This document shows positions 1,801-41,234 of a stretch of DNA of 46,804 nt, one piece after another. Both the position numbers and the translations under genes were made by a program. The stretch is from Lentimicrobium sp. L6 (GTDB lineage: Bacteria > Bacteroidota > Bacteroidia > Bacteroidales > UBA12170): positions 1 through 46,804 of the forward strand of contig NZ_JABKCA010000044.1 of assembly GCF_013166655.1 (NCBI RefSeq). The letters run 5' to 3'. The notes below the pieces were generated by a model that saw nothing but the letters and a program-made list of their open reading frames with translations, was not told the origin of the DNA and searched no databases. The stretch's first letter is position 1. Every line of letters starts with the position of its first letter.

Positions 1801-4284
1801 ATGTCACGAAAAATAAACACTTCCTATTTAAAGACGCTTTGTTTGCTACTTATTATTTTCATGAGTAGTATAAGTATTGCTCAGGCTCAACTAACCATTA
1901 TTAGTGATTCCACCGAGAATTATTATGGTTTTCCGGATATTGATTTTGAGATTGAAAAACTCAATAAATATCTAAAAACCACCAAGAAAAACCTCTCCAA
2001 TAAATCGCAATCTGCATTGGTAGATAGTAATTTCAGAAAGCTAACCAAAAGGATTAATATTGAAGAGGAGGAGTTTGAAGATTATAATCATAAGAATTTA
2101 TCCAAGTTCTTTTTGATCAATACCAATAGAATATGGGCGGGGTATGAGAGTCAGTTAAAGGGTTGGCAAACTTATATTTATGAAACCCTAAGCCAACTAG
2201 AAAAACAGACACTCTCTTTAAATGAGAAAAAGCAAAAGTGGCAAAGTACTGCAAAAAATATTGGTGATCAGAATGTTCCATTGTCTATTAAAGAAAGGAT
2301 ACAAAAGGTCTTGTCGGAGATTAAAACACTTCAAAAAGCCAATTATCAATATAGTATCAGACTGATTAACCTAGAAAATGACATCACTGATCAGCTGGTG
2401 GTGGTTGAGTCTGTTATTTTGGATTTGGAGGAGCTTCAGGAGAGTTATAGAACCAAATTATTTCAAATGTCAGAAGTAGCTATTTGGAATATTGGTCTTA
2501 AAGACTCATTTGAAGGTACCGCCTTTGCAAGGGTGAAAAAAGCATGGTACGAGAATACCAAGTCTTTTAATAATAATGCAGAAGTTTATTTACAGTACCT
2601 CAGCAGTTATGTTTTTGCTTGTCTCTTCATTTTGGCTCTCATTATCTTTTTAAGATTCCGATATATTAAGATTTTCGGCTCGGATCATAAGTCTTTAAAA
2701 TCCGATATTAACTATATTTTGATTGCAAAGCCCTATGCCAGCGCTTCAAGTTTATTCATTTTGTTCTTCTTTATTACTTTTCGAAATATTCCTTTAGCCT
2801 TAACTGGGATCATGGGAATGTTATTATTGATAAACATATATTCGGCTTCTTTCTCCTATACAAAGAAACAAGGGAAATCCATTTTAGTACGTTTCATTAT
2901 CCTAATGCTTTTGAATAATATAGAAGTTTTATTCTGGTATTTTGGTCATTATTCTAGACTATATATTTTATTGGAGACCACTTTAGCTGTTGTTTTCACT
3001 GCAGGCTATTTAACCACTAAATTTACAACACAAACCTTACCAAACCTTCGTTTTAGAAAAGCAATTTCCATCCTTCGGTATCCGGTGTTCTTTTTATTTT
3101 TGGCCAGTTTTATTGGAAATATTTTTGGTTTCTTAAACCTATCAGTCTTATTCCTGAAAATTGGCATACAAATTACTGCCGCTATTATTATCATCGTAGG
3201 ATTATGGCATATGGTTTTAAGTTTGATAGAGATTATAAGCCACCTGATTCGTAATCATGAAAATCTTAAAGTACTCCATTATGTTCCGCTTTTTAAAAAG
3301 CGTTTGACGCAATTTCTTGGTGTTTTGTTTATGTATTTACTTCTCTATGTTATCTTGGCTATTCTTGAACTTGAAGCTCCTTTTGATGAGTTTATGGAAG
3401 ATTTTTTTGAGATGGAGAGGCATTTAGGAGGGTTTGTGTTTACTTATCTGAGCATATTCCAATTTATAATTAGCATAGCTATCACCTATGGTTTGTATTC
3501 GCTTGTTGGAATTATTTTTGACAATAAAAACTTCAAGAAATCGCAATCCTTAAGAGGTATTCCTGCTGCTATTGGGATGACACTAAAAATTATTATTGGA
3601 TTTAGTGGTGTTATGATTGCTCTTACAGCGGCGGGTTTCGATATGACCAAACTTAGTATTATCATGGGAGCACTAAGTGTGGGTATTGGTTTTGGTTTGC
3701 AAAATGTGGTGAATAACTTTATCTCAGGATTGATTCTGATTTATGAGCGTCCTGTGCAGGTTGGTGATATCATTGAAATAGGACCATTAATTGGAGAGAT
3801 TAAAAGCATAGGTATTAGAAGTAGTAATATTAGAACCTATGATGGGTCTGAAGTGGTGGTGCCAAATTCTAATCTGGTTTCAGACCAATTGATCAATTGG
3901 ACTTTATCGGATGATTATAAAAGGATAGAGATCATTGTTGGAGTTGCTTATGGTACCGACCCTAATAAAGTGATTGAAATTTTGAATAAGGTGGCTAGAG
4001 AAAGTGATATGGTGGTAAATCAGCCAGAACCACGTGTATTATTCAATGAGTTTGGTGATAGTTCTTTGAATTTCCGTTTGCTATTTTGGACTTTGTTTGA
4101 TAATGGCTTACAGGCCAGAAGTGATATTTCGGTTTTAATAGCCGATGCTTTTGCTAAAAACAATGTTGAGATACCTTTCCCACAGCTCGATTTACATGTG
4201 AAGGAGGAGCAGGAGCAGGATAAAAAACTTCTAGAAACGGAGGATGGTTCTGGAGAGCCAAAGATGAAACGGGATGAAGGCTAA
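1801..4284 (+). CDS. Large MscS-family mechanosensitive channel
   Basis: An inner-membrane, tension-gated channel expected to release solutes on hypo-osmotic shock. The 827-residue protein has a signal peptide (cut near AQA-Q, residue 30), a ~220-residue periplasmic region with coiled-coil character (KTLQKANYQYSIRLINLEND), and about ten membrane segments. The MscS core lies at about residues 585-800. It includes a glycine/alanine-rich pore helix (IIMGALSVGIGFGLQNVVNNF), the beta domain (ERPVQVGDIIEIG, then YDGSEVVVPNSNLVS) and the C-terminal alpha/beta domain (IIVGVAYGTDPNKV). The length and the extra periplasmic domain place it with the MscK/YbdG-like large members rather than the ~280-residue MscS. 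Its last 11 bases overlap the next gene, suggesting translational coupling. The acidic tail after residue 800 is variable in the family. Confidence 0.93.
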   Translation: MSRKINTSYLKTLCLLLIIFMSSISIAQAQLTIISDSTENYYGFPDIDFEIEKLNKYLKTTKKNLSNKSQSALVDSNFRKLTKRINIEEEEFEDYNHKNLSKFFLINTNRIWAGYESQLKGWQTYIYETLSQLEKQTLSLNEKKQKWQSTAKNIGDQNVPLSIKERIQKVLSEIKTLQKANYQYSIRLINLENDITDQLVVVESVILDLEELQESYRTKLFQMSEVAIWNIGLKDSFEGTAFARVKKAWYENTKSFNNNAEVYLQYLSSYVFACLFILALIIFLRFRYIKIFGSDHKSLKSDINYILIAKPYASASSLFILFFFITFRNIPLALTGIMGMLLLINIYSASFSYTKKQGKSILVRFIILMLLNNIEVLFWYFGHYSRLYILLETTLAVVFTAGYLTTKFTTQTLPNLRFRKAISILRYPVFFLFLASFIGNIFGFLNLSVLFLKIGIQITAAIIIIVGLWHMVLSLIEIISHLIRNHENLKVLHYVPLFKKRLTQFLGVLFMYLLLYVILAILELEAPFDEFMEDFFEMERHLGGFVFTYLSIFQFIISIAITYGLYSLVGIIFDNKNFKKSQSLRGIPAAIGMTLKIIIGFSGVMIALTAAGFDMTKLSIIMGALSVGIGFGLQNVVNNFISGLILIYERPVQVGDIIEIGPLIGEIKSIGIRSSNIRTYDGSEVVVPNSNLVSDQLINWTLSDDYKRIEIIVGVAYGTDPNKVIEILNKVARESDMVVNQPEPRVLFNEFGDSSLNFRLLFWTLFDNGLQARSDISVLIADAFAKNNVEIPFPQLDLHVKEEQEQDKKLLETEDGSGEPKMKRDEG

Positions 4285-5164
4285 AAAAGCTTCTAAAATT
4301 ACCTCTATTTATCAGGTACATATTTCTGTATTCCTTTTTGGATTTGCAGGTTTGTTTGGGAAATGGATCGGTTTAAATGCCATAACTATAGTGTGGGGGA
4401 GGGTGCTTTTTGCTTCATTGGCATTTGGAATGTGGTTTCTGGTGAAACGCGAAAATCCATTTCGAATTCCATTTAAGTCTTATATTTATTATTTCCCTTT
4501 GGGTGCTTTATTGGCCTTTCATTGGTGGAGTTTCTTTGCATCTATTCAAATGAGTACTGTTACCATTGGACTCATTAGCTTCTCGAGTTTTCCTATTTTT
4601 ACTTCTTTACTTGAACCTCTCATTTTCAAAAAACCTTGGAAGTATTCTTGGTTTATCTTAGCCCTCCTCAGTTCTATTGGTATTTATTTGATTTTACCAG
4701 AATGGAATTGGGAATCTGAATATACAAAAGGCGTTTTTTGGGGCATCATGAGCGGATTGAGTTTTTCTTTTATCACCATTTTAAATCGCTATCTATTATT
4801 ATATAAGACTTTTGGAAAAGAGAATTCTTCCATTGAGTTGACCTTCTTTCAAGATTTATTTGCCATGGTTTGTCTGTTTCCTTTATTATTTCTTTTTCCT
4901 GAAGATATAAATATAATGGCGTGGTCGCAATTGCTTTTATTAGGATTGGTGTTTACTGCTTTAGCTCACCTGTTATATATTAATGGATTGAAGAAAGTAG
5001 AAGCTAGAACCGCTTCCTTAATCTCCAATATGGAGCCAGTTTGGGGCATTTTATTTGCTGTTTTATTATTAGGTGAAAGTTTGAATGGTAAATTATTATT
5101 TGGTGGCTTTTTAATTCTACTATCAGCGATTTTGGCCAGTCGATTATCAAAAAAGGCAGGCTAA
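4274..5164 (+). CDS. EamA-family (DMT) transporter
   Basis: A 296-residue, ten-helix inner-membrane protein built from two EamA repeats (about residues 10-140 and 152-290), as in drug/metabolite exporters. Each repeat ends in the typical helix pair: LLEPLIFKKP in the first, NMEPVWGILFAVLLLGESL in the second, where the ExxW...LGE pattern is diagnostic. The substrate cannot be told from sequence. The ATG at 4274 lies inside the end of the MscS gene (11-base overlap), so the two are probably co-translated. Whether the pairing is functional is unclear; both are envelope proteins, but a channel and a metabolite exporter have no known joint role. Confidence 0.9.
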   Translation: MKAKKASKITSIYQVHISVFLFGFAGLFGKWIGLNAITIVWGRVLFASLAFGMWFLVKRENPFRIPFKSYIYYFPLGALLAFHWWSFFASIQMSTVTIGLISFSSFPIFTSLLEPLIFKKPWKYSWFILALLSSIGIYLILPEWNWESEYTKGVFWGIMSGLSFSFITILNRYLLLYKTFGKENSSIELTFFQDLFAMVCLFPLLFLFPEDINIMAWSQLLLLGLVFTALAHLLYINGLKKVEARTASLISNMEPVWGILFAVLLLGESLNGKLLFGGFLILLSAILASRLSKKAG

Positions 5165-27476: not shown

Positions 27477-27502
27477 GATTTAAATGATAAATATATAGAT
27501 TT

Positions 27503-27533
27503 GGCTCTTCATTTGTGGGGGGGCATTTTTTTT
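27503..27533 (+). terminator. Rho-independent terminator
   Basis: GGCTCTTC pairs with the G-rich arm GGGGGGGC (with G-T wobbles) over a short ATTTGT-type loop, followed by A and eight T. It ends the barrel-protein gene and lies inside the longest open frame of the next gene, which argues for that gene's start at 27588. Confidence 0.65.
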
Positions 27534-27587
27534 ATTTTATTTTTTTGGCATCAAAATTGTAATTTCACCTTTCAAATAAATATCCGC

Positions 27588-30500
27588 ATGATGAAATCAC
27601 TGAAAATTCTATTCATAGGCCTAAGTATTCTTATTGGAAATACAATGATGGCTCAAACTTTTGATTTTGAAAAAAGTTGGAAACAAATTAATGATTTAGA
27701 GAAAAAAGGCTTGTCTGCTCAAGCATTAGAGCAATGTCAGATCATATTTATTCAAGCTCAAAAAGAGGATAATTCTGTACAGCTAATCAAGAGCTTGATT
27801 TATAAAAGTAATTTCCGTCAAGCCTATGAAGAGGAGGCCCTAAAGAAATCAATTGGAGAAATTAAGGAGATTCTATCTGCTAGTAATGGAATTGAGAAAG
27901 CACTCTTATCCATCGCCTTAAGCGATTTGTATCAGCAATATTATCAGCGAAACCAATGGGATATTCGTGGGCGTTTGCATGTGAGTGGACGAGTGGCAAA
28001 AGACCTAGAAGCTTGGAGTCAGGAGAATTTTAGAGAGGAAAAAGAGAAATTGATTTCTGCAGCATTAGCCGAAGAAGGTTTATTGATGAAGTCACCATCA
28101 GAACCTTGGAAAGAGATTTTTCTGGATCAAGAAAAGGATTTCAAAACCTTCCCCACACTATTTGACTTTGTGGCTTGGAAAGCCATCGCTTTTTATTCCG
28201 CCTCTGAGTTTTCTAACTCAGCTCAAGAGGATTTGGTGATTTTGAATCAGGTGATGCTTTTTGGAGATGACAGTCAGTTTGTAAATGTGATATTTAATGA
28301 TTTTGAAGCCAAAAGCGCTAAAGTAAAAACCATTCAATTATTTCAAAAACTGATTAAAAAACATCAAGGCAATAAAACACCAAATGCATTTCTATATGCA
28401 GAATCACAGCGAATAGCATATCTAAAGAGCAATGGGCAAATTGATGATAAAGAATCCCTTTTATTAAAAACGCTAAACAATGTTTTTGAGAATTATAAAG
28501 GACAAGCAGGAAGTGAATTTTTAGCTGAGGAATTGATAAACCAGTATAAATGGAATACCGGTAATGAATATGATTTAAGAAAAGCTGAGGCCATTTGTCA
28601 AGCCATGATTGAGGTAGACAGGAACTCCAAATATTTTAAAGGCGTATTGACTAGTCTTCAAGCCAAAGAATTGAATATTTCTATGGATGGGGTTATTCTT
28701 CCAAATCAAGCTGCATTTTCTACTATTTCGTTTCAAAATATGACTCAGGCTTGGTTTAAAATTATTCAATTATCTGAGGACGAAATTATAGAAAGAAATA
28801 GCAGAGGTGAAGATCAGATATCGAAATATTTGAATTCCCCATTGATAGCAGAATTTGACTATGCTCTGACTGTTCAAAACTACCTTTCTGCGAAGAAAGC
28901 ATTATTCGAACTCCCTCAATTGGGAGTGGGGCATTATGCTATTATTGCTAGTACGGGTCCCGATTTTAATCTGGAAAAAGACCAACTTCGAATGGGGGAG
29001 TTCTGGGTGACCGGGTTACAACTCATCAGTAGGGGAAACGATGGGCATTTCTTGATAGTAGATAGGGAAACAGGAAAACCAATAGATAAAGCAAAAGTTG
29101 AAGTTTACTCTTCTCAATGGGAGTATTCTACACGAACCAATCTATCTAAACTAGAAGAGACTATCACATCTGGAAAAGATGGAACTTTCCAATATATGAA
29201 TGTGAATGGAAAGCAAATCACCTTTATAATATCCAAAGGACAAGACGAATGGAAAAGTGGAAATGTATATGTAAGAGAATATCATGAAACGGATAGAACC
29301 AATGAAAAACATTACTATTTCACAGACCGAGCCATCTATCGGCCAGGTCAAAAAGTGTATTTTAAGGGAATCTTCACCAATCAAAAGAAAAACGATGTGG
29401 AGCCTATTGCTAAGCTAAGCAAAGAGGTGAAGTTATATAGCACCAATGGCAAAGTCATTCAAACTATAAATGTGACTTCCAATGAATTTGGTTCTGTTGC
29501 AGGTAGTTTTGTTTTACCACTTTCTGGATTAACTGGAAATATGAGAATTTCTGATGGAAAGGGGAGTGTAAGTTTTAAAATGGAGGAATATAAACGTCCT
29601 AAATTTGAAGTGAATTTAGAAAGCCCAAGCGTAGAATTTCAGTTGAACGATCAGGTGAGTTTGTCGGGAAATGCAACGTATTTTGCTGGTATTGGTGTTC
29701 AGAATGCAAAAGTGAAGTATAGAATCAGTCGTGCAGTATTTATGCCTTGGCGCTGGGGTTTTTGGCCGCAAATTGAGGATTTAGATATTAGCGCTGGTGA
29801 AGTTTCAACCAATGAACAAGGCGAATTTGAAATCAGTTTCTTGGCGCTTGCTCCTTATGATATAGAGTTCTTGCCTTGGTTTAATTATCAAATCACAGCA
29901 GAAGTAAGTGATGAAAGTGGTGAAACTCATACTGCTAGTATGGATATCCGACTGGGTAAACAATCCATACTCATCTCCACTAATTTACCTGAGGTGATGG
30001 ATTTGGAACATCCCAAAGATGTGGAAGTGAAGGCTGAAACCCCAAATGGCAAAAAACTCAATAGCCAAATCCACTTTAAGTTGGAAAAGCTGATTACGAA
30101 GGAAAAACTTAGTCGTTTAGTGAAAGTGAATGTGGATACCCTCCTCATTTCTCCTGAAAAGTTGAAAAAGGATTATAAAGATTTTGTATTTGCTCAAAAA
30201 CGTGCTCCTTTGAAAATTGAAGCTACAGTTCTAGAGAAAACCCTGCAAACAGAAATAGATTCCATCATACCTAAAAGCATTTTCCAGTCTTTACCAATTG
30301 GCAGTTATAAAATGACTTTAAGTACGGTAGATAAAAATGGAATAGAAGTGAAAGATACGGCGTCCTTTAAAATATTCTCTTCCAAAGAGAATAAATTGGC
30401 TTCAGCCGAAGAGTTCTTCCATATAATGAATCACCAAAATGCAAAAGTTGGAGATACATTGCATTTTAGCTTTGGGTCTTCTGTAAAGAATCCTCAATAC

Positions 30501-33464
30501 TATTATCAGTTAAGCTCAGGTTCCGAAATGATTACTTCTTCTTGGTATAAAGTTTCTAAAGGATTGAATCATATAAGTATTCCTATTACAGAGAATTATA
30601 GAGGAGGTTTGAGCTTACAGCTTTTCTTTGTGGCTAATAATCAAGTTCACGATGTTTCTCAAAACATCAGCATTCCTTTCGATAATAAAGAATTAAAAGT
30701 GGAATTAATCACCTTTAGAAGCCCCATGGAACCTGGAACTAAAGAGCATTGGAAGCTCAAAATCAGAAATAGAGATGGAGCGCAAGTGGATGCCGAAGTT
30801 TTAGCGGCCATGTATGATGCTTCTTTAGATGTTTTTCAGGAGAATAATTGGACTTTATGGCCCTATCACCCTAAGAATAATCCGTTTAATTGGAGTTCTT
30901 TAGGTAGCTATTTCTCCGAAACTAGAAATAGATATGATTCACCATCCTATCCTTCATTTTCTAATCCTAGTCCTTTAGAACTGGCTTTCACTAATTCTTC
31001 TCGTAATAACAGGATTATGTATTCGAAAATGGCTGGTGCAGGTGCCATGCCAATGATGGATGGTATGAAGGCGGAAGCTGACATGGATTCAGAAGCAATT
31101 CCAGAACAACCTAGAAGCGTGGCAATAACAAATATGGTAATTGAAGAAGAACCAGAAAACCCAAAAACAGAACCCAAACCTGTCACACCAAGAAAAAACC
31201 TGGAGGAAACGGCATTCTTCTATCCTCAATTAAAGACAGATATGGCGGGACAGGTTTCATTAAATTTTGTCAGCCCTGAAGCTTTAACAAGATGGAAATT
31301 GATGGTGATGGCAACGACTCAAGATATGGAAATAGGTCATTTTACTCAGGAAGTAGTGACTCAGAAAGAATTAATGGTGATGCCCAATCTTCCTCGCTTT
31401 TTAAGAGGTGGTGATCAAATGACATTAAGTACTAAGATTTTAAATCTTTTAGAGGAGGAACAAGTTATAAATGCAGAGTTAGAAATTTTAGATGCGGCTA
31501 CCAAAGAGCCACTGAATATGTTGGTGAGTGGACAAGTAAGTGAGCAGAGTTTGAGTATTTCTGCAAAAGGACAAGCAGAGGTCAGTTGGAGTATTCTAGT
31601 TCCAGAAGAAATAGGTGCAGTTATCATCAGGGTATTGGCTCAAGGCCCAGCGCATAGCGATGGTGAAGAGCATATTCTTCCAGTACTCAGTCAGCTTCAT
31701 TTCCTGACTGATACTTATCCTTTCTGTCTTTCTACACAAAATAGTATCACGCCAGAGGAGCTATCTTTGAGAGAGGTGGAAAGACCAAATCAGGATGAAT
31801 TGACTCTAGAAATCACCACAAACCCATTATGGTATGTGGTTCAGGCTTTACCCAATTATGCCTTGCCTCAAAAGCCCAATGCTTTGTCTTGGTTTAATTA
31901 TTATTTTATCCATGCCATGGCTTCGGATATTGTAAAAACGAATCCTGAGATTCAAGAAGTATTTAAGCAATGGCAACAACTTTCGCCAGAGGAATTAGAA
32001 TCGGAATTATTCCAAAACCCAGAGCTGAAAAAGGTAATGATAGAAGAAACTCCATGGGTGTTCAATGCCGAAAACCAAAGCCTCAGAAAAAGAGAAATAG
32101 CTAGATTATTCGATGAGAACAATTTGAATTATCAATTGGAGTCTGCATTAATGAAGCTTCAAGAACTGCAAAAGTCGAATGGTGGTTTTTCTTGGATAGA
32201 TGGAATGCCAACAAGTACTTATATCTCGGCTGAAATTTCTGCTGGGCTTGGTCAGCTTTTAGAAGCAGGGATTATTAATCCTGAAAAAGAATATGCCATA
32301 AAAAATCTGATTAAGAACTTAGTGAAGTATTTAGATGATGAAATTGAAATCAATTATCAGAAAGCTTTGAATAAAAAAACAGGATATTCTGCCCATGGTT
32401 TGGTTTCAGCTAGAGCTTATTTCATAGAGTCTTATCCATTAAAAGAAAAGCAAATTGCATTCGATTATTTCCTCAATAAGATGACGGAAAAGAAACATCA
32501 GAAATCATTATCTCAGAAAATGGGATTGGCTCGTATATTATGGTATAATGGTCGTTTTGAGGAGGCTAATGAATTAATGGCCGCTCTTAAAGATATATCC
32601 TTGACTGATGAAAATGGAGGAATCTATTGGAGAGACTTCCAGCGTTACGAGTCGGTGAGAAAACAAGCAGAGATGATTTCGCTATTTAGCTTAGCTAAGA
32701 CTGATGATCAATGGATAGAAGGCATGAAACTTTGGTTATTGCAGCAAAAGCGTGCCAACGATTGGGGTGATAATAAAGCCACTGCACAGGCCTGTTTCGC
32801 TATGCTAAACGGAAGTACTGCTTTGTCGAATAGTCCAAAAGTATACCTTATAATAAATGGTGAAGAACAACTGATAGATGGAAATGCCGGAACTGGATAT
32901 TTCAAAATCACCTGGAGAGGAAACGAGATTCCAAAAGCACTAGAAGGATTTGAAATCAGAAAAGAAGGTAAGGGAATGATTTTCGGAGCTTTCTACGATC
33001 AGTATTTCGAAAAGATGTCGGAAATTGATGCCCATGAAGGTGGTGTGGAATTGCAAAAGCAAGTGTTTGTAGCCAAGACAGAAGATGGGAAAAACGAGCT
33101 ATTAGCATTAGAAGATGGAGCCAAAATAGAATTGGGCGACAGAATTGTAGTTCGCATGATTTTAAATAATAAGCAGGCTATGGATTTTGTGCACTTGCGC
33201 GATTATTTACCCGCAGGCTTCGAAAATCAGAATCCACTGTCTGGTTATCATTGGCAAGGTTCTATTTCCTATTATCAAGCTCCTGGCGATGTGGCCACCG
33301 ACTATTTTATCTATCACCTACCCAAAGGTAAATTTGTGATAGAATACGAATTAAATGCCACTATTAGCGGAAAGCTCAATCTAGGCCCAGCAGAGGTACA
33401 GTCTATCTATGCACCGGAGTTTGGCGGGCATAGTGAGGGTGGTTTTGTAGAAGTAATAAAGTAA
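27588..33464 (+). CDS. Giant alpha-2-macroglobulin-like protein without thioester
   Basis: A 1958-residue exported protein when started at ATG 27588, where the signal peptide (MMKSLKILFIGLSILIGNTMMAQT) begins. The open frame extends to TTG 27501, but that part is terminator and leader. The N-terminal ~400 residues are helical and TPR-like. A macroglobulin series follows: FLIVDRETGKPIDKAKVEVYS, then FTDRAIYRPGQKVYFKGIFTNQ, a hallmark of the family. A low-complexity Met/Ala/Gly/Glu-rich insert is followed by the A2M core (ETAFFYPQLKTDMAGQVSLNF, EALTRWKLMVMATTQD). The thioester CxEQ is absent: at the expected place near residues 1425-1440 the sequence reads ALPQKPNALSWFNYYF. It is therefore unlikely to trap proteases covalently. 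The C terminus has the MG10-like DFVHLRDYLPAGFE segment. Confidence 0.92.
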   Translation: MMKSLKILFIGLSILIGNTMMAQTFDFEKSWKQINDLEKKGLSAQALEQCQIIFIQAQKEDNSVQLIKSLIYKSNFRQAYEEEALKKSIGEIKEILSASNGIEKALLSIALSDLYQQYYQRNQWDIRGRLHVSGRVAKDLEAWSQENFREEKEKLISAALAEEGLLMKSPSEPWKEIFLDQEKDFKTFPTLFDFVAWKAIAFYSASEFSNSAQEDLVILNQVMLFGDDSQFVNVIFNDFEAKSAKVKTIQLFQKLIKKHQGNKTPNAFLYAESQRIAYLKSNGQIDDKESLLLKTLNNVFENYKGQAGSEFLAEELINQYKWNTGNEYDLRKAEAICQAMIEVDRNSKYFKGVLTSLQAKELNISMDGVILPNQAAFSTISFQNMTQAWFKIIQLSEDEIIERNSRGEDQISKYLNSPLIAEFDYALTVQNYLSAKKALFELPQLGVGHYAIIASTGPDFNLEKDQLRMGEFWVTGLQLISRGNDGHFLIVDRETGKPIDKAKVEVYSSQWEYSTRTNLSKLEETITSGKDGTFQYMNVNGKQITFIISKGQDEWKSGNVYVREYHETDRTNEKHYYFTDRAIYRPGQKVYFKGIFTNQKKNDVEPIAKLSKEVKLYSTNGKVIQTINVTSNEFGSVAGSFVLPLSGLTGNMRISDGKGSVSFKMEEYKRPKFEVNLESPSVEFQLNDQVSLSGNATYFAGIGVQNAKVKYRISRAVFMPWRWGFWPQIEDLDISAGEVSTNEQGEFEISFLALAPYDIEFLPWFNYQITAEVSDESGETHTASMDIRLGKQSILISTNLPEVMDLEHPKDVEVKAETPNGKKLNSQIHFKLEKLITKEKLSRLVKVNVDTLLISPEKLKKDYKDFVFAQKRAPLKIEATVLEKTLQTEIDSIIPKSIFQSLPIGSYKMTLSTVDKNGIEVKDTASFKIFSSKENKLASAEEFFHIMNHQNAKVGDTLHFSFGSSVKNPQYYYQLSSGSEMITSSWYKVSKGLNHISIPITENYRGGLSLQLFFVANNQVHDVSQNISIPFDNKELKVELITFRSPMEPGTKEHWKLKIRNRDGAQVDAEVLAAMYDASLDVFQENNWTLWPYHPKNNPFNWSSLGSYFSETRNRYDSPSYPSFSNPSPLELAFTNSSRNNRIMYSKMAGAGAMPMMDGMKAEADMDSEAIPEQPRSVAITNMVIEEEPENPKTEPKPVTPRKNLEETAFFYPQLKTDMAGQVSLNFVSPEALTRWKLMVMATTQDMEIGHFTQEVVTQKELMVMPNLPRFLRGGDQMTLSTKILNLLEEEQVINAELEILDAATKEPLNMLVSGQVSEQSLSISAKGQAEVSWSILVPEEIGAVIIRVLAQGPAHSDGEEHILPVLSQLHFLTDTYPFCLSTQNSITPEELSLREVERPNQDELTLEITTNPLWYVVQALPNYALPQKPNALSWFNYYFIHAMASDIVKTNPEIQEVFKQWQQLSPEELESELFQNPELKKVMIEETPWVFNAENQSLRKREIARLFDENNLNYQLESALMKLQELQKSNGGFSWIDGMPTSTYISAEISAGLGQLLEAGIINPEKEYAIKNLIKNLVKYLDDEIEINYQKALNKKTGYSAHGLVSARAYFIESYPLKEKQIAFDYFLNKMTEKKHQKSLSQKMGLARILWYNGRFEEANELMAALKDISLTDENGGIYWRDFQRYESVRKQAEMISLFSLAKTDDQWIEGMKLWLLQQKRANDWGDNKATAQACFAMLNGSTALSNSPKVYLIINGEEQLIDGNAGTGYFKITWRGNEIPKALEGFEIRKEGKGMIFGAFYDQYFEKMSEIDAHEGGVELQKQVFVAKTEDGKNELLALEDGAKIELGDRIVVRMILNNKQAMDFVHLRDYLPAGFENQNPLSGYHWQGSISYYQAPGDVATDYFIYHLPKGKFVIEYELNATISGKLNLGPAEVQSIYAPEFGGHSEGGFVEVIK

Positions 33465-34475: not shown

Positions 34476-35030
34476 ATGGAAACAAAGAAATTAAGGAGAA
34501 GTCTAAAAGACTCAGTTATAGGAGGCGTTTCCGGAGGTTTGGGAGAGTATTTCGGAACCGACCCGGTGATTTTCAGGATATTATTTATCGTATTGACCTT
34601 TACAGGAGGTGGCGGTGTTTTAATATATCTTCTAATGTGGATATTCATTCCCAAGGCGGAAATCGATTACGATTTTTTCGAAAACAAATCCACAAGTGCC
34701 AATGAAAAAACAGAAGCAAATGACAATGCTCAAGAACCCAAAGCAGAGCCTTTTGGTGCTGAATCTAAGGGAGCTAAAGAAGACTTTTTTGGTGCAAAAG
34801 ATAAAAGTAAGTCTCTGGACCCAGAAGTGCTAAAAAGAAGGAAAAATGGAAACCTAATTGGAGGCGCCCTATTGATAATGATAGGAATGTTCTTTCTAGC
34901 TGATGATTTCTTTCCTTGGCTGAGCTGGGAATACCTATGGCCTGCAGCTTTAATTATTGCTGGATTGGCTATCATTAAAGTGAATTATAATAATAAGAAA
35001 CAAGAAACTGATCAAGATGGAAAATCGTAA
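34476..35030 (+). CDS. PspC-domain membrane protein
   Basis: A 184-residue membrane protein with an N-terminal PspC domain (LRRSLKDSVIGGVSGGLGEYFGTDP, then a hydrophobic segment and YLLMWIFIPK, residues 6-61). An acidic Lys/Glu/Ala linker (62-120) follows, then two more hydrophobic stretches (GGALLIMIGMFFLADDF; YLWPAALIIAGLAII) that resemble the LiaI/LiaF-type transmembrane unit (DUF5668). PspC-type proteins monitor or respond to inner-membrane stress. Its last 14 bases overlap the next gene, which carries the same type of membrane unit, so the two likely act together at the membrane. No PspA gene is in view. Confidence 0.88.
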   Translation: METKKLRRSLKDSVIGGVSGGLGEYFGTDPVIFRILFIVLTFTGGGGVLIYLLMWIFIPKAEIDYDFFENKSTSANEKTEANDNAQEPKAEPFGAESKGAKEDFFGAKDKSKSLDPEVLKRRKNGNLIGGALLIMIGMFFLADDFFPWLSWEYLWPAALIIAGLAIIKVNYNNKKQETDQDGKS

Positions 35031-35979
35031 TATATTTTGGGGAGTCCTTTTAGTAGCCGTTGGCGGACTCTTTATTCTAGATAACATGGATTTAATCAAC
35101 TTTAGTTTCTCTGCTTTAGTTGGACTATGGCCTCTTTTATTAGTGTTGTGGGGAATTAGTATTTTACCAATGAAACCGATGTATAAAACAGTTGGGGGAT
35201 TGTTGATTGCGGTATTTGCTTTGGTTTATGCTTCTACAAGTGATAAAACATTTTGGTGGCAAGATCACATCATCAATAAATTCGATAAAAATGTTCATAT
35301 GAATTATGGAAATGATGATGACGAGGATTATGATGACGATGATGATACTTATTACAATTTCAAATTCGACGAAGATTCAACCTCCAATATCACTAATGCC
35401 AAGCTGAATATGGACATAGCTGCTGGAAAATTTAGAATAGATGAAGCTACGGATGATCACATCATAGACTTTGATGCCTATAGCAATATTGGCCCATATA
35501 CCAGCAATATGGTAATGAACGGGAATACCGCTGAAATTAATATCGACTTAGAGGATGGCGTGATAAGAAATGGCACCAATAGAAATAGAGCCTCTATTAA
35601 ATTAAACCCAAAAGTAGAATGGGATTTAGACTTAGATATTGGAGCAGCAGATTTTAGAGCCGATTTCAGAAAATTTAGAGTGAGCAAATTGGATATCGAT
35701 GGTGGAGCCTCTGCAATAAAAGTAAAAATTGGAGATCTACAAGAAGATACCTTTATCAAGATAGATGCAGGTGCAGCTTCCATAAGAGTCGATATTCCAC
35801 AAGAAGCAGGTTGCTTGATAGAATCAGAATCCTTTTTAGTAGATATGGAATTAGATAACTTCCAAAAAAATGGGAATGGTGATTATGTGACTTCAAACTA
35901 TGAAGCAAGCGAGCAAAAAGTAAGAATAGATATCGATGCTGCTATTTCAAAATTAAAAGTAGGTAGATATTCAAAGTAA
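35017..35979 (+). CDS. LiaF-like membrane protein with beta-helical C-terminal domain
   Basis: A 320-residue protein. Residues 1-75 contain the LiaI/LiaF-type membrane unit (NIFWGVLLVAVGGLFILDNMDLI, then LWPLLLVLWGISILP and a further helix). A strikingly acidic stretch follows (NDDDEDYDDDDD, 99-110). Residues 120-320 form a regular beta domain (NAKLNMDIAAGKFRIDEA, WDLDLDIGAADFRADF, IDGGASAIKVKIGD, IDAGAASIRVDIP) like the LiaF C-terminal/toastrack domains of cell-envelope stress modules. The repeated G-A-[AS] turns fit a short right-handed beta-helix or sandwich. It overlaps the PspC gene by 14 bases and ends at a terminator. The role in membrane-stress signalling is inferred. Confidence 0.85.
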   Translation: MENRNIFWGVLLVAVGGLFILDNMDLINFSFSALVGLWPLLLVLWGISILPMKPMYKTVGGLLIAVFALVYASTSDKTFWWQDHIINKFDKNVHMNYGNDDDEDYDDDDDTYYNFKFDEDSTSNITNAKLNMDIAAGKFRIDEATDDHIIDFDAYSNIGPYTSNMVMNGNTAEINIDLEDGVIRNGTNRNRASIKLNPKVEWDLDLDIGAADFRADFRKFRVSKLDIDGGASAIKVKIGDLQEDTFIKIDAGAASIRVDIPQEAGCLIESESFLVDMELDNFQKNGNGDYVTSNYEASEQKVRIDIDAAISKLKVGRYSK

Positions 35980-36108: not shown

Positions 36109-37377
36109 TTATTTCCAAATTAGATTTTCTAATTTCCACTTGTCTTTTGCTTGGTCTTCTCCTGTTGGATAACCTATGGGAATGACATTGAGGGGAATGT
36201 GATTCTCGGGTAGATTCAGCTCTTTTACCACTGCTATTGTTCTATCATCATAGGGAAATGCTGCTGTCCATACAGCTCCTAGGCCAATACTCTCTGCTGC
36301 CAATAGGATGTTTTCTGATGCTGCAGCACAATCATGCACCCAATAGTCTTTGTCTTTGAGCTTGCCTGCTTTGTCCATATCACCACATACTACAATAGCT
36401 GCTTGGGCCTGTGCTAACATTTTACCATAGGGCAATTTCTCACTGAGTCTCTTTAGTGTGGCTTTGTCTGTAACGACATAAAAAGCCCACGATTGACGAT
36501 TGACTGCTGAAGGAGCAGCCATGCCCGCTCTTACTAGAAGCTCCAACTGGGCTTTAGAGACAGTGTCATTAGTAAAGTGTCTAACACTTTTTCTATTATG
36601 AATGGTCTTCAATGTTTCGTTGGCATATGTCCTTTTTACTGACGGAATAAAAGGTTTCCCGTCCACCTGCTCAAACATATCACTCTGCATACCTATAAAA
36701 TTACCTGCTCCATAATAGCCGCCATTGGCATAGATAATTGGTTTTAGCAGATTCATATCAATAGTACCATTTGCCCCCAATACAGCTTTGTCAGCCTTTA
36801 CATCAATTACTTTTCCTATGAATTGTCTATGAGAGCCCAAATCATGATATTCCGTTAGTTCACACTCAATCACTATAGGAAATTCTTTAATATAGGGTGC
36901 ATCAACAAATTCTCCTCTTACAGGTGTAAGCCCAGTTTCTTTGAACTTATCCATATCCTTTCCTGAATATTTCCCTACATAAGAAACATATTTTGTTAAT
37001 TCTTCAGTTGGAATATTCACCGTAAAAAACTTCTTATTGGTAAGGTTGTGATATGAATAGGTAGCTGGACGCATAGATACAGCAATGCTAAGCGGCTGCG
37101 AATTGGCAATACTCACCCATGCTGCAGTCATCATATTAGGCTTCCCATCCTGATCATATGATCCAATAACTAATGCTGGTTTAGGATACAAGGCGGATAT
37201 TATGCCCAACGATTTTTTTTCAAAATTATTTACAGTCGAATCATTCTCCGCAAAACCTGAAGTTAACTGTGCAGGCAACGATATCAAACGCGTCGTTTCT
37301 TCTTTTTGCGTTAACATAACAACCAATACCAATACGATAAAAGCTAAGCCAATATTTAAAATTTTACTTTTTTCCAT
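36109..37377 (-). CDS. Membrane-anchored flavin-reductase-like/nitroreductase fusion
   Basis: A 422-residue protein when started at ATG 37377 (the open frame goes on to 37485 but overlaps the upstream gene deeply). The basic MEKSK followed by one hydrophobic helix (ILNIGLAFIVLVLVVMLT, 6-23) predicts an inner-membrane anchor with the rest outside the cytoplasm. Residues about 54-235 are an FMN-binding split barrel of the DIM6/NTAB flavin-reductase type (LYPKPALVIGSYDQDGKPNMMTAAW, HNLTNKKFFTVNIP, GKVIDVKAD). Residues about 255-422 are a nitroreductase domain (IHNRKSVRHFTND, GMAAPSAVNRQSWAFYVV, ESIGLGAVWTAAFP, IPLNVIPIGYPTGE). Two FMN domains in one anchored chain is unusual. Its start overlaps the stop of the NosR-like gene by 14 bases. 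The electron acceptor is unknown. Confidence 0.87.
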   Translation of the reverse strand: MEKSKILNIGLAFIVLVLVVMLTQKEETTRLISLPAQLTSGFAENDSTVNNFEKKSLGIISALYPKPALVIGSYDQDGKPNMMTAAWVSIANSQPLSIAVSMRPATYSYHNLTNKKFFTVNIPTEELTKYVSYVGKYSGKDMDKFKETGLTPVRGEFVDAPYIKEFPIVIECELTEYHDLGSHRQFIGKVIDVKADKAVLGANGTIDMNLLKPIIYANGGYYGAGNFIGMQSDMFEQVDGKPFIPSVKRTYANETLKTIHNRKSVRHFTNDTVSKAQLELLVRAGMAAPSAVNRQSWAFYVVTDKATLKRLSEKLPYGKMLAQAQAAIVVCGDMDKAGKLKDKDYWVHDCAAASENILLAAESIGLGAVWTAAFPYDDRTIAVVKELNLPENHIPLNVIPIGYPTGEDQAKDKWKLENLIWK

Positions 37378-38539
37378 CTTCTGTATTTTTAAGAGCTTGT
37401 TTTTTATATGAAATAGTATCCATGAAACATCCTGTTGGGCAGACTGTGCAATAAGGTTTGTTAAAGAAAAGAGATAAAATAACAATTAAACCTCCAGCTA
37501 TAAAGAAACCATAGCTTGCTATTCTGAACGAAAACATCATAAAAGGTTCAAAATGATTTAATTGAGGTGAAAAACCAAACAATAGTATAGCTGCAATAAA
37601 GAATAGATACGCCTCTCTTATCGATAAGTTTTTCCACGATTTTGGCAATATCTTTTTTTTAAATGGCGAAACCTTATTTACCAATTCTTGCAATGCTCCC
37701 ATTGGGCAGAGGTAGTTGCAATAATACTTTCGCTTTCCTAAAAATGATATGCCTATGGCTAAAACAAATAGCATTACCGATTGCCAGTTAAGCACCCACG
37801 GAATTCCGTTTAATAACCAACTGTATAATAAAAATATCGAAAGGGTTTTGTTCAGTACAATTCCAACCACTATAACTACCAAAACCAAATAGTAAGGGCG
37901 TAGTTTCTTATGAGCCTTTCCAAATGCAAACGCTAGCGATAGCAAGACAACAACCAAAAATAACACATCTTTTATCGTGCTTAAAATTGGCTGTTTTTCC
38001 CAACTATCTATTGGCGAATTATAAAATACTGCCGCTGTTCCTTTCATTCCTTTAATAATAGCATTGCTGCTCATTGTAGCACCAGTAGCCCCATCTACAC
38101 TTTGCTCTTTCACCTCACGAAGCGATAAATTATTCCATTGTTGTAAAAAGTCACCACGAGTAACATAGGCTAAATAATCAACCGTCTCTCCGCTATTTAG
38201 CAAGCTTATCCCCTTTACATTATATTTATCATCAAGACCTATGAGTATCGGCACGAGCCCTCCATAACCTATATTATCTGTCACATAATCAGAAGAAACC
38301 AATGCTTTTCCTATCTCTATTTCTCCTGACCTAACTTCTATTATATTACTATTGGATTTTAGAAAAGAATTTGCCTCTGGGAAGATGTTTTGTACCGATT
38401 CTAAGGTAACAACGACCTCTATATTTGATTTAGTGAAAAGATGCCTTCGGCCACCACTATAGGCTATAGCTGCAAGGAGAATAAGCACAAGCGTGTAAAG
38501 ATATATGGTCTCTGAAAGTTGATATTTTGATATTCTCAT
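37364..38539 (-). CDS. NosR/RnfG-like flavinylated iron-sulfur membrane protein
   Basis: A 391-residue inner-membrane electron-transfer protein. After an N-terminal helix (residues 11-28), a periplasmic FMN-binding domain ends in DGATGATMSS (149-158), the ApbE flavinylation motif with Thr155 as the expected covalent FMN site. Five or six membrane helices follow, with cytoplasm-facing cysteine motifs CNYLCP (C274, C278) and CTVCPTGC (C364, C367, C371), typical of NapH/NosR polyferredoxin-type 4Fe-4S sites. This is the NosR layout, shorter than the ~700-residue NosR. It is the first gene of a two-gene operon, overlapping the anchored nitroreductase fusion by 14 bases. No apbE or nos genes are in the window, so a nitrous-oxide role is not implied. 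Confidence 0.88.
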   Translation of the reverse strand: MRISKYQLSETIYLYTLVLILLAAIAYSGGRRHLFTKSNIEVVVTLESVQNIFPEANSFLKSNSNIIEVRSGEIEIGKALVSSDYVTDNIGYGGLVPILIGLDDKYNVKGISLLNSGETVDYLAYVTRGDFLQQWNNLSLREVKEQSVDGATGATMSSNAIIKGMKGTAAVFYNSPIDSWEKQPILSTIKDVLFLVVVLLSLAFAFGKAHKKLRPYYLVLVVIVVGIVLNKTLSIFLLYSWLLNGIPWVLNWQSVMLFVLAIGISFLGKRKYYCNYLCPMGALQELVNKVSPFKKKILPKSWKNLSIREAYLFFIAAILLFGFSPQLNHFEPFMMFSFRIASYGFFIAGGLIVILSLFFNKPYCTVCPTGCFMDTISYKKQALKNTEDGKK

Positions 38540-39169: not shown

Positions 39170-40651
39170 TTACATCCATTTTTCCCGAGAAGTCTCCACA
39201 TGATAAAGAAGATAGTTCATCAGTTGATGTGCCATATCTTCGGAAATATAGGGGATATTCATTTGTCCTGAAGCATTATTTACCCTTAAGGTGGCCAAGC
39301 CCCTTCTTTTTTGAAAGAAGGATTGCCTGAAATCAACAGATTGTGTTTTAAAAGATTCTGCTTGTTGCCACTCGGTATTAATGGCTCCTTTGCCCACAAT
39401 CAATTGCGTTTTATTAAACTGAAAATAGCTTTTCCTGACCATCATCCGGCAGTATAGCCCAGATATAATTAACCATGCAACTCCAGCAATGAGCAATAAA
39501 GGTTCATGAAAATAGAATACGCTTGGGGCTATGGCAGGAATTACTCCTCTTTGAAGCCATAGCAAATTAAAGTATCTGGGATGTGAATAAATCTTTTCGC
39601 TATGGTCAGGCAAATCATCCTTAAATAATTCACCTCTAATACTTGAAATATGATGCTCAAGACAACCGGGAGCATCAGCCACTTGTTTTTGCTTGGTCTG
39701 TTTACTTACCGCTTGTTTAAAGCTAATTCTAAAAATACCAAATATCTTTTTTATGGGGCCGGTTTCCCAGTTGAGTTGCTGTATTTTATTGAATGGAAGT
39801 AAAACCTTACGCTTATCAATTAAACCAGTAGTAATTTTATAACTTTCTTGATGCTTGACCAATCTAAAATCGTAATATTTGATGACGGTGTATAGAAGTG
39901 TAGCGAGGACGGAGGCGAGTAGAGCAATAATAGTTAATCCAGCAAAAAACAAGATACTTGAGTTCGCTATAATGCTTTGAAAAGAATCAGAATAAGCATC
40001 GGTTTCTTCTTTGAATAAATCTTGAATCTGATCTACTATTTGAGAAGTAAAAACAAGAATAATTAATCCTGTTTTCAGATGGTTTTGGCTGATGCCTATT
40101 CGCAATAAATCTAAGGGACTTAGTTTTAGAATTTCTTTTTCTTCATTGTCATTAGAAATGGATTCAGAATCTTTTTCATTTGCTTTTTCCTTATGTGATT
40201 GCAAGAATTCAGTTAAATGCTCGGTATAAGCTCCACTTAAGGAATATATCTTTAATTCTTTTCCTACTGAGCCTGCGGTTTCTACCTCAAGGGAATGTAC
40301 ATTTAGTAGCCGCTGTAAGAGATTCTGATTTGTGTTCACGCTCTGTATACGATCCAATGGTATAGAAAGTACTTTCTTGCGGAGGTATCCTTTTTTAAGA
40401 ATAAACTGATTCTCATCAATAAAAAAGTAGAAATTCAGGTAAAAAAGAATGGAGTGAACAAGTATTAATAGGATAATAATCCCTATGACCATAGGAATAG
40501 TTATAGATTCTGGTAGTCGATGCTTCTGAGCAAAGATAAGGATGAGCATAGGCCAGTAGGCTCGTAATTTAGCTTGAAGTTCAAAAGCGAAAACCGCTAA
40601 AAATCCTCGAGGTTCTTGTCGAGTGGGTTTTGTTAAATCAGGCTTAGTCAT
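39170..40651 (-). CDS. YdbT-like protein with three bacterial PH domains
   Basis: A 493-residue membrane protein with three bPH2 (DUF304) domains. The first, about 75-145, reads FILKKGYLRKKVLSIPLDRIQSVNTNQNLLQRLL. The second, about 265-320, reads YKITTGLIDKRKVLLPFNKIQQLNW. The third, about 410-480, reads LIVGKGAINTEWQQAESFKTQSVDFRQSFFQKRRGLATL. Hydrophobic helix pairs separate them (about 30-72, 190-255, 360-400). This three-domain plan matches the YdbT family, whose role is unresolved, possibly in envelope or lipid homeostasis. Its start overlaps the stop of the smaller partner by eight bases, as in the ydbS-ydbT pair of Bacillus. An acidic Glu/Ser insert (160-175) is lineage-specific. Confidence 0.88.
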   Translation of the reverse strand: MTKPDLTKPTRQEPRGFLAVFAFELQAKLRAYWPMLILIFAQKHRLPESITIPMVIGIIILLILVHSILFYLNFYFFIDENQFILKKGYLRKKVLSIPLDRIQSVNTNQNLLQRLLNVHSLEVETAGSVGKELKIYSLSGAYTEHLTEFLQSHKEKANEKDSESISNDNEEKEILKLSPLDLLRIGISQNHLKTGLIILVFTSQIVDQIQDLFKEETDAYSDSFQSIIANSSILFFAGLTIIALLASVLATLLYTVIKYYDFRLVKHQESYKITTGLIDKRKVLLPFNKIQQLNWETGPIKKIFGIFRISFKQAVSKQTKQKQVADAPGCLEHHISSIRGELFKDDLPDHSEKIYSHPRYFNLLWLQRGVIPAIAPSVFYFHEPLLLIAGVAWLIISGLYCRMMVRKSYFQFNKTQLIVGKGAINTEWQQAESFKTQSVDFRQSFFQKRRGLATLRVNNASGQMNIPYISEDMAHQLMNYLLYHVETSREKWM

Positions 40652-41234
40652 GCTGGTTTACTTTTGATAAGAGAAAGGATTCTATTTGAAGGGCTTTATC
40701 TGGCAATAGCCCAGGGATAGAAAGATCGCTCACACTACCTCCAGCTGTAAATACTTTAACCCTCGACAAACCAAAGCTCTTTTCCATCATATTCTGACTC
40801 ACTTCTACATGTTGTATTCGATTAAATGGAATGGTGGTTAGTTTGTAAATCAGAAGTCCTCTACGGAATGATATATCTTGTTCTCGAAGCAAATATCCTT
40901 TTTTGGGAAAACCGAGAATGACGAGGACAAATCTCAAAATAAATATCAATACAAAGACAGAAGGTATGCCCATTGATACTAAGATTGGGATATCACCAGT
41001 TGAGAATTGGATACTCAGGAAAAAGATAGTCAGTGCTATAAATAATATAATGGCAGCGCCTATTTGGTTGATAAGTTTATACTTCTTTTCCAGAGCTTCA
41101 AATTCTTGAACTTCTATTGGAGCGAGTAGATCTGGTAATATCACTTGATTTGAGAATTCTTCGTTTGCATGCATATTCATTGGATTATTAGAACCTATTT
41201 TGAGGATGGTATTTATTAAAATTTGGTCCACCAC
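40644..41234 (-). CDS. YdbS-like protein with one bacterial PH domain
   Basis: A 196-residue membrane protein with two hydrophobic helices (about 57-74 and 82-108) and one bPH2 domain (about 112-190: GYLLREQDISFRRGLLIYKLTTIPFNRIQHVEVSQNMMEKSFGLSRVKVFTAGGS). It is the expected small partner of the downstream three-domain protein; the genes overlap by eight bases. The start is uncertain: the frame opens at GTG 41234, but ATGs at 41180 and 41174 precede the first conserved region equally well. The extra 18-20 residues look uncharacteristic, so 41180 may be the true start. The role of the family is unsettled. Confidence 0.85.
   Translation of the reverse strand: MVDQILINTILKIGSNNPMNMHANEEFSNQVILPDLLAPIEVQEFEALEKKYKLINQIGAAIILFIALTIFFLSIQFSTGDIPILVSMGIPSVFVLIFILRFVLVILGFPKKGYLLREQDISFRRGLLIYKLTTIPFNRIQHVEVSQNMMEKSFGLSRVKVFTAGGSVSDLSIPGLLPDKALQIESFLLSKVNQHD

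What the first reader, a model, noticed from the sequence alone, without database searches (positions are those of the whole stretch)
36109..38539. Two-gene extracytoplasmic flavin electron relay
A NosR-like membrane protein with an ApbE flavinylation motif (Thr155) and two cysteine cluster motifs overlaps by 14 bases a protein with one membrane anchor, a split-barrel flavin reductase domain and a nitroreductase domain. By the positive-inside rule the flavin domains face outside the cytoplasm. Covalent-FMN proteins are known to feed extracytoplasmic redox enzymes, but this fused, anchored acceptor is not one of the combinations I can name. It predicts a system that delivers cytoplasmic electrons to an external substrate such as a quinone, nitro compound or flavin.
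Basis: partly seen in the sequence, partly recalled or inferred. Interest (0 to 1): 0.62.

Follow-up and report, generated by a model that had tools for sequence, protein, structure and literature searches.

The report
Membrane relay feeding external flavin reductases
Two neighbouring bacterial genes appear to form a small wire that carries electrons through the cell membrane to a flavin enzyme anchored outside, where the usual soluble fuel NAD(P)H is not available; the parts are of known types, but this combination was not found in the papers searched.

Summary
Window 37364-38539 (-) encodes a six-helix NapH/RdhC-type protein with an FMN_bind domain (TGAT, Thr155) and two cysteine motifs; it overlaps by 14 bases 36109-37377 (-), which encodes an anchor helix, a flavoredoxin-type split barrel and a nitroreductase. 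The pair is conserved: all 9 full-length fusions found (8 of 393 genomes of the order, one in Ancylomarina) have the NapH-like gene directly upstream. Relatives show a modular set: NapH-like with flavoredoxin, with nitroreductase, with both as separate genes, or with an anchored old-yellow-enzyme-type protein. In two genomes the NapH-like protein continues in one reading frame through a seventh helix into flavoredoxin or nitroreductase, which puts the enzyme on the outer side. One apbE lies elsewhere in the genome. Best reading: a flavinylated NapH-like relay feeding NAD(P)H-free flavoreductases outside the cytoplasm, probably reducing electrophiles such as quinones or nitro compounds. Pairing is shown and outside placement well supported; electron flow, donor and substrate are inferred. 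Corrections: 'NosR-like' should read NapH/RdhC-like; cytoplasmic electrons are unproved; the two enzyme domains may be parallel outputs and not a serial relay. New variant of a known kind.

The parts
37364..38539 (-). NapH/RdhC-like membrane protein, 391 aa, six predicted helices
38042..38269 (-). FMN_bind domain, residues 91-166
   Evidence: 39.1 bits, E 1.2e-9; same stretch found independently
38066..38095 (-). flavinylation motif DGATGATMSS with Thr155 (codon 38075-38077)
   Evidence: GAT invariant in 13 of 13 and 22 of 22 aligned relatives; [ST]GA[ST] found in 37 of 40
37697..37720 (-). first cysteine motif CNYLCPMG (CX3CP), predicted inner side
37427..37450 (-). second cysteine motif CTVCPTGC (CX2CP), predicted inner side; this form only in the flavoredoxin-paired group
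   Evidence: 10 of 40 NapH-like proteins tabulated
37364..37377 (-). 14-base gene overlap
36109..37377 (-). anchored flavoredoxin-nitroreductase fusion, 422 aa
37306..37362 (-). N-terminal anchor helix (residues 6-24)
   Evidence: hydropathy 2.5; helix 5-26 in the model
36688..37218 (-). flavoredoxin-type split-barrel domain, residues 54-230
   Evidence: 2d5m E 1.4e-51; PF01613 102.6 bits
36112..36624 (-). nitroreductase domain, residues 252-422
   Evidence: 3m5k E 3.4e-50; PF00881 97.4 bits

Best explanation
A two-protein system that carries electrons across the membrane to an enzyme outside. The NapH/RdhC-like protein takes electrons from quinol or from a low-potential cytosolic carrier, passes them by way of its inner cysteine-bound centre to an FMN that ApbE has attached to Thr155 on the outer side, and from there to the anchored partner. 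The partner's flavoredoxin and nitroreductase domains each hold FMN and reduce a substrate outside the cytoplasm without NAD(P)H. Relatives exchange the output enzyme (flavoredoxin alone, nitroreductase alone, both apart, or an anchored old-yellow-enzyme-type protein), so the NapH-like protein is best read as a common relay with interchangeable flavoreductase heads. The likeliest job is removing or respiring electrophiles (quinones, nitro compounds, enones). Shown by sequence: domains, motif, pairing, exchange of modules, presence of apbE. Strongly inferred: outside placement, and that the two proteins work together. Only inferred: direction of flow, donor, FMN loading outside, substrate.
For: Pairing in all 9 fusions found. 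In 46 NapH-like matches of 393 genomes of the order, 21 have a flavoreductase fused, adjacent or one gene away. Three-gene unfused version in G195. Single-frame NapH-helix-flavoredoxin (G206, 622 aa) and NapH-helix-nitroreductase (G064, 603 aa), with the seventh helix modelled at residues 389-409 in G206. Anchored PF00724 protein after NapH-like in G191. Invariant GAT and cysteines. apbE in the own genome and in 11 of 13 others. FMN domain of PceC, same layout, shown outside and its threonine shown to bind FMN (PMC5928378, passages). HxlR genes near 4 of 11 NapH + nitroreductase/PF00724 loci.
Against: 19 of 46 NapH-like matches have no flavoreductase neighbour and 6 belong to another branch. 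Eight close nitroreductase relatives (55-62% identity) are soluble and unpaired, six more have an anchor or lipobox-like start without a NapH-like neighbour in the stretch read. The anchor's own charges are ambiguous. No Tat signal is seen, so non-covalent FMN would have to be loaded outside, which is unexplained. NfsA's FMN lies at -215 mV (PMC11049802, abstract), which makes menaquinol a poor donor unless the substrate pulls. The fusion is rare: 8 of 393 genomes of the order, 1 of 395 in the phylum sample, the own genome. Two NapH-like relatives (L113, L119) gave no [ST]GA[ST] match. Both single-frame proteins are from draft assemblies, and G064's has unread bases in its nitroreductase part.
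Confidence: 0.7

Rival explanations
1. Cytoplasmic reading: the 422-aa protein sits with its domains inside, uses NAD(P)H like ordinary nitroreductases and flavin reductases, and hands electrons to the NapH-like protein from the inside or works apart from it.
For: Closest nitroreductase relatives include soluble proteins; charges around the anchor are ambiguous; nitroreductases and flavin reductases are usually NAD(P)H enzymes (general knowledge).
Against: Seventh helix in the two single-frame proteins; anchored or lipobox-like relatives; FMN attachment site on the outer side by charge rule and by analogy with PceC.
Confidence: 0.1
2. Reverse flow: the anchored enzyme oxidises an external substrate and the NapH-like protein feeds the electrons into the quinone pool.
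For: NapH-like proteins occur with an ethanol oxidase as well as with reductases (PMC8238504, section 9); nitroreductase-fold oxidases exist (9exv and 8uc3 among the fold and sequence matches).
Against: Partner families found (flavoredoxin, nitroreductase, PF00724) are mostly known as reductases (general knowledge).
Confidence: 0.1
3. Flavin shuttle: the split barrel reduces free flavins outside, and these diffuse to distant acceptors; the nitroreductase is secondary.
For: PF01613 proteins reduce flavins or carry FMN; one relative has only the flavoredoxin part (G181).
Against: At least 8 relatives have only the nitroreductase next to the NapH-like gene.
Confidence: 0.07
4. Orphan RdhC: the first protein serves the reductive dehalogenase encoded elsewhere in the genome, and its pairing with the second is incidental.
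For: The genome has one dehalogenase-like gene (PF13486, G000:C64); the layout is that of RdhC.
Against: The genome has a second NapH-like protein (G000:C137, E 3.1e-48) that groups with those next to Tat-signal 4Fe-4S proteins and apart from this one (99/100); pairing with the fusion in all 9 cases found.
Confidence: 0.03

Closest known systems
'NapH-like' flavinylation systems (Meheust et al. 2021, PMC8238504; section 9 read, other passages seen)
   Same: Fer4_5 membrane protein with an N-terminal FMN-binding domain outside, ApbE site, genes for varied oxidoreductases beside it.
   Different: Partners named there are nitrous oxide, organohalide and nitrite reductases and an ethanol oxidase; nitroreductase, flavoredoxin, PF00881, PF01613 and PF00724 do not occur in the main text; supplements could not be read.
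RdhC/PceC (PMC5928378, passages)
   Same: Six helices, outer FMN domain, two cysteine-proline motifs, no C-terminal ferredoxin part.
   Different: Second motif is CX2CPTGC; no dehalogenase beside it; separate branch from the dehalogenase-type relatives.
NosR
   Same: FMN_bind plus the NapH-type membrane part (residues 187-372 match, 35.4 bits).
   Different: No C-terminal ferredoxin part; far below the cut-off of 1000; no nos genes in the window ORFs seen; the NosZ search rang nowhere and shows nothing.
Flavoredoxin of Desulfovibrio vulgaris (2d5m)
   Same: 46% identity and same fold over the split barrel.
   Different: Here membrane-anchored and fused to a nitroreductase.
Bacteroidota nitroreductases 3m5k and 3kwk
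   Same: 50% identity, same fold.
   Different: Named as NADH dehydrogenase/NAD(P)H nitroreductase by depositors; here anchored, fused and paired with a flavinylated relay.

Membership tests
NapH-like flavinylation system | Fer4_5 (PF12801) protein with several membrane helices | tested here: met
   54.7 bits, cut-off 22; six helices
NapH-like flavinylation system | FMN-binding domain with [S/T]GA[S/T] site | tested here: met
   PF04205 39.1 bits; TGAT at Thr155
NapH-like flavinylation system | ApbE in the genome | tested here: met
   G000:C8, 274.4 bits; 11 of 13 other genomes
NapH-like flavinylation system | FMN actually attached, electron transfer | not testable with these tools
   needs experiment
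RdhC/PceC | two CX3CP motifs | tested here: not met
   first CX3CP, second CX2CPTGC
RdhC/PceC | gene beside a reductive dehalogenase | tested here: not met
   neighbours are the fusion, bPH_2 and PspC/LiaF genes; the dehalogenase-like gene is on another contig
NosR | NCBIfam NosR model over cut-off | tested here: not met
   35.4 bits against 1000
Flavoredoxin / Flavin_Reduct (PF01613) | split-barrel domain close to flavoredoxin | tested here: met
Flavoredoxin / Flavin_Reduct (PF01613) | FMN bound, electron carrier or flavin reductase activity | not testable with these tools
   needs experiment
Nitroreductase (PF00881) | nitroreductase fold and sequence | tested here: met
   97.4 bits; 3m5k, TM-score by target 0.94
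Nitroreductase (PF00881) | NAD(P)H as donor | not testable with these tools
   predicted not to apply outside the cytoplasm; needs experiment

The most novel reading that the evidence does not exclude
A general outside platform: one class of flavinylated NapH-like relays supplies interchangeable, NAD(P)H-free flavoreductases (flavoredoxin, nitroreductase, old-yellow-enzyme type) anchored outside the inner membrane, so that these bacteria reduce quinones, nitroaromatics or enones, possibly drugs too, before they enter the cell; in some relatives the genes would be switched by an HxlR electrophile sensor.
Probability: 0.45. Interest if true: 0.72.

Novelty: new variant of a known kind. Interest (0 to 1): 0.55.

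Why it matters
Nitroreductases and old yellow enzymes are textbook NAD(P)H enzymes of the cytoplasm. A membrane relay that feeds them outside would give these Bacteroidota a way to meet electrophiles, nitro-drugs or humic-type quinones at the cell envelope. It would assign a function to a branch of NapH-like proteins, most of whose reactions are unknown (PMC8238504, section 9), and it offers natural single-frame fusions as ready constructs for measuring electron transfer from an attached FMN to an enzyme.

Tried and rejected
NosR membership: rejected. Orphan RdhC of the genome's dehalogenase: disfavoured. Recent insertion of the pair at this site: inconclusive; in the genus mate G003 the two flanks lie on different contigs, with no copy of the pair within the 1.5 kb read beyond either, and G+C of the pair (0.37) is near the window's (0.36). 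Phylum samples: the fusion in 1 of 395 genomes (the own one; two more match by the nitroreductase only), NapH-like at E <= 1e-60 in 1 of 395 (the own one); these samples hold few genomes of the own order. Fold searches matched single domains, not the combination. The place of L082's nitroreductase is unresolved, and the bootstrap of that tree had not settled. NosZ: no match, but the family rang in no control genome, so this shows nothing. HxlR genes were sought by a crude pattern and by eye and then confirmed by Pfam; the pattern missed one of the two at L134, so absence elsewhere is weak. Paper searches without a report of the combination: (open-licence papers only; supplements could not be read).

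Full report
What is there. On the minus strand, 37364-38539 encodes a 391-aa protein and 36109-37377 a 422-aa protein; they overlap by 14 bases. The mechanical ORF of the second begins at an upstream TTG (458 aa), but its eight full-length relatives begin at the position of the ATG at 37377. The first protein has FMN_bind (residues 91-166) and Fer4_5, a flavinylation motif DGATGATMSS with Thr155, and the cysteine motifs CNYLCPMG and CTVCPTGC. Hydropathy gives six helices, with 21 K/R on loops of the N-terminal side and 5 on the other side, so the FMN domain is predicted outside and both cysteine motifs inside. The second protein has one anchor helix, a split barrel closest among solved structures to Desulfovibrio flavoredoxin 2d5m (E 1.4e-51) and a nitroreductase closest to 3m5k (E 3.4e-50). 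Its AlphaFold2 model (29 sequences, mean pLDDT 79.3, pTM 0.48) shows a helix at 5-26 and the two domains, with poorly predicted stretches at 25-49 and 233-252; fold matches are 3m5k (50% identity) and 2d5m (46%).

Conservation of the pair. In 393 genomes of the order 20 have a match at E <= 1e-55, of which 8 are the full-length fusion. One scan of named genomes gave five loci, one of them full length: Ancylomarina sp. 16SWW S1-10-2, 82% identity. These 9 fusions all have the NapH-like gene directly upstream on the same strand, junctions from a 14-base overlap to a 17-base gap; other neighbours differ from genome to genome apart from near relatives. In a phylum sample of 395 genomes, 3 match at E <= 1e-55 and only the window's own has the fusion. 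In the genus, none of the 10 other genomes searched reaches a fusion-level match (best E 1.0e-40). One of them, G003, has a NapH-like plus anchored nitroreductase pair, with an in-frame stop in the NapH-like gene.

Modularity. A profile of 13 NapH-like proteins gave 46 matches in 40 of 393 genomes of the order at E <= 1e-40. I read the neighbourhoods of all 46 (stretches; maps; domains). They divide into: 8 with the flavoredoxin-nitroreductase fusion; 1 with an anchored flavoredoxin only (G181); 1 with flavoredoxin in the same reading frame (G206, 622 aa); 1 with an anchored flavoredoxin and an anchored nitroreductase as separate genes (G195); 8 with an anchored nitroreductase adjacent (G013, G385, G245, G103, G130, G243) or one HxlR gene away in divergent order (G346, G021); 1 with nitroreductase in the same reading frame (G064, 603 aa); 1 with an anchored PF00724 protein (G191); 6 low-scoring ones of another branch; 19 with no flavoreductase neighbour seen. 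So 21 of 46 have a flavoreductase fused, adjacent or one gene away. The Ancylomarina and G003 loci are additional to the 46.

Topology. The G206 and G064 proteins run NapH part, seventh helix, then flavoredoxin or nitroreductase. With six helices and the cysteine motifs inside, the seventh helix carries the enzyme outside. In the model of the G206 protein (31 sequences, mean pLDDT 81.4, pTM 0.58) this helix is residues 389-409. The anchor of the two-gene form corresponds to it by eye. Some related nitroreductases have lipobox-like starts (L068 flagged by pattern; L006 and L064 and L075 by eye), none of them with a NapH-like neighbour in the stretch read. For PceC, of the same layout, the FMN domain was found on the outer face and the threonine shown to carry FMN (PMC5928378, passages). 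Charges of the anchor do not settle the matter: net +1 to +3 before the helix and -1 to +4 in the 15 residues behind it in the nine fusions.

Flavinylation. GAT is invariant in 13 of 13 and 22 of 22 aligned NapH-like proteins; in a cruder table [ST]GA[ST] was found in 37 of 40, missing in L113 and L119 and in L132, whose tabulated ORF lacks its N-terminal part. The genome has one apbE, on another contig, and five FMN_bind matches, so apbE is needed for this reading but is not specific to the pair. Of 13 other genomes tested 11 have apbE; the misses are 86% and 61% complete; Ancylomarina could not be searched.

Trees. In the NapH-like tree (48 rows) the 9 fusion partners and the two flavoredoxin-only cases form one group (97/93), and six rows holding the dehalogenase-type relatives another (99/100); nitroreductase partners fall in at least three places. 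The dehalogenase labels rest on gene order seen by eye for L141, L143 and L144 and on genome content for L140; only the own genome's dehalogenase was matched to PF13486, and L143's neighbour matched 4Fe-4S families only. Ten proteins of 40 tabulated have the second motif CX2CPTGC, the partners of the nine fusions and of the G181 flavoredoxin; the G206 and G195 ones have CX3CP. In the nitroreductase tree (35 rows) eight of nine fused domains form a group (100/97); the ninth is unresolved.

Mechanism. Most likely electrons go from quinol or a low-potential cytosolic carrier to the cysteine-bound centre, across the membrane to the attached FMN, then to FMN in the partner, then to an external substrate. 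What the cysteines bind is open even for RdhC (PMC5928378, passages). Because relatives have flavoredoxin only or nitroreductase only, flavoredoxin is not an obligatory bridge; a serial relay and two parallel heads both fit. The partner families, and HxlR genes near 4 of 11 NapH + nitroreductase/PF00724 loci and near one anchored nitroreductase without a NapH-like neighbour in view (L058) (PF01638), hint at electrophiles as substrates: the MarR/DUF24 repressors YodB, CatR and QsrR sense quinones and control nitroreductases (PMC6798810, passages; that PF01638 is the same family is recalled). No HxlR was noticed at the nine fusions or the other three flavoredoxin loci (pattern and eye only).

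Against. Eight close nitroreductase relatives are soluble and unpaired; 19 of 46 NapH-like genes stand without such a neighbour; FMN loading outside is unexplained; NfsA's FMN at -215 mV (PMC11049802, abstract) makes menaquinol a poor donor unless the substrate pulls.

Known or new. The class is known: NapH-like flavinylated proteins with varied oxidoreductases (PMC8238504, section 9 read). Flavoredoxin, nitroreductase, PF00881, PF01613 and PF00724 do not occur in its main text, nor in that of PMC11334425. No paper in the open-licence library was found that joins them. Hence new variant of a known kind.

Noticed in passing
L134:4970-6067 (+), beside the NapH-like gene at 3886-4968: An anchored old-yellow-enzyme-type protein (PF00724, 189 bits) follows a NapH-like gene, with HxlR genes on both sides.
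   Followed up: partly
L161:6265-7722 (own genome, contig C64): A reductive dehalogenase-like gene with Tat-type start (PF13486) followed by a small membrane protein, at a contig end; a second NapH-like protein lies on contig C137 and may be its RdhC.
   Followed up: partly
L113-L116, L118-L128, L130, L133, L136, L137: 19 NapH-like genes with FMN_bind-type layout that have no flavoreductase neighbour; their partners are unknown, and L113 and L119 gave no [ST]GA[ST] match.
   Followed up: no
L010:2150-3307: The NapH-like gene of the genus mate G003 has an in-frame stop after about 292 codons while similarity goes on; decay or assembly error.
   Followed up: no
window 27501-33464 (+): A very large protein with bacterial alpha-2-macroglobulin domains (MG2, A2M, bMG10).
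   Followed up: no
window 34476-35979 (+) and 39170-41234 (-): A PspC/LiaF-type pair and a bPH_2 pair flank the system. The PspC/LiaF pair is found in 10 of 10 genus mates searched, the larger bPH_2 gene in 1 of 10.
   Followed up: partly
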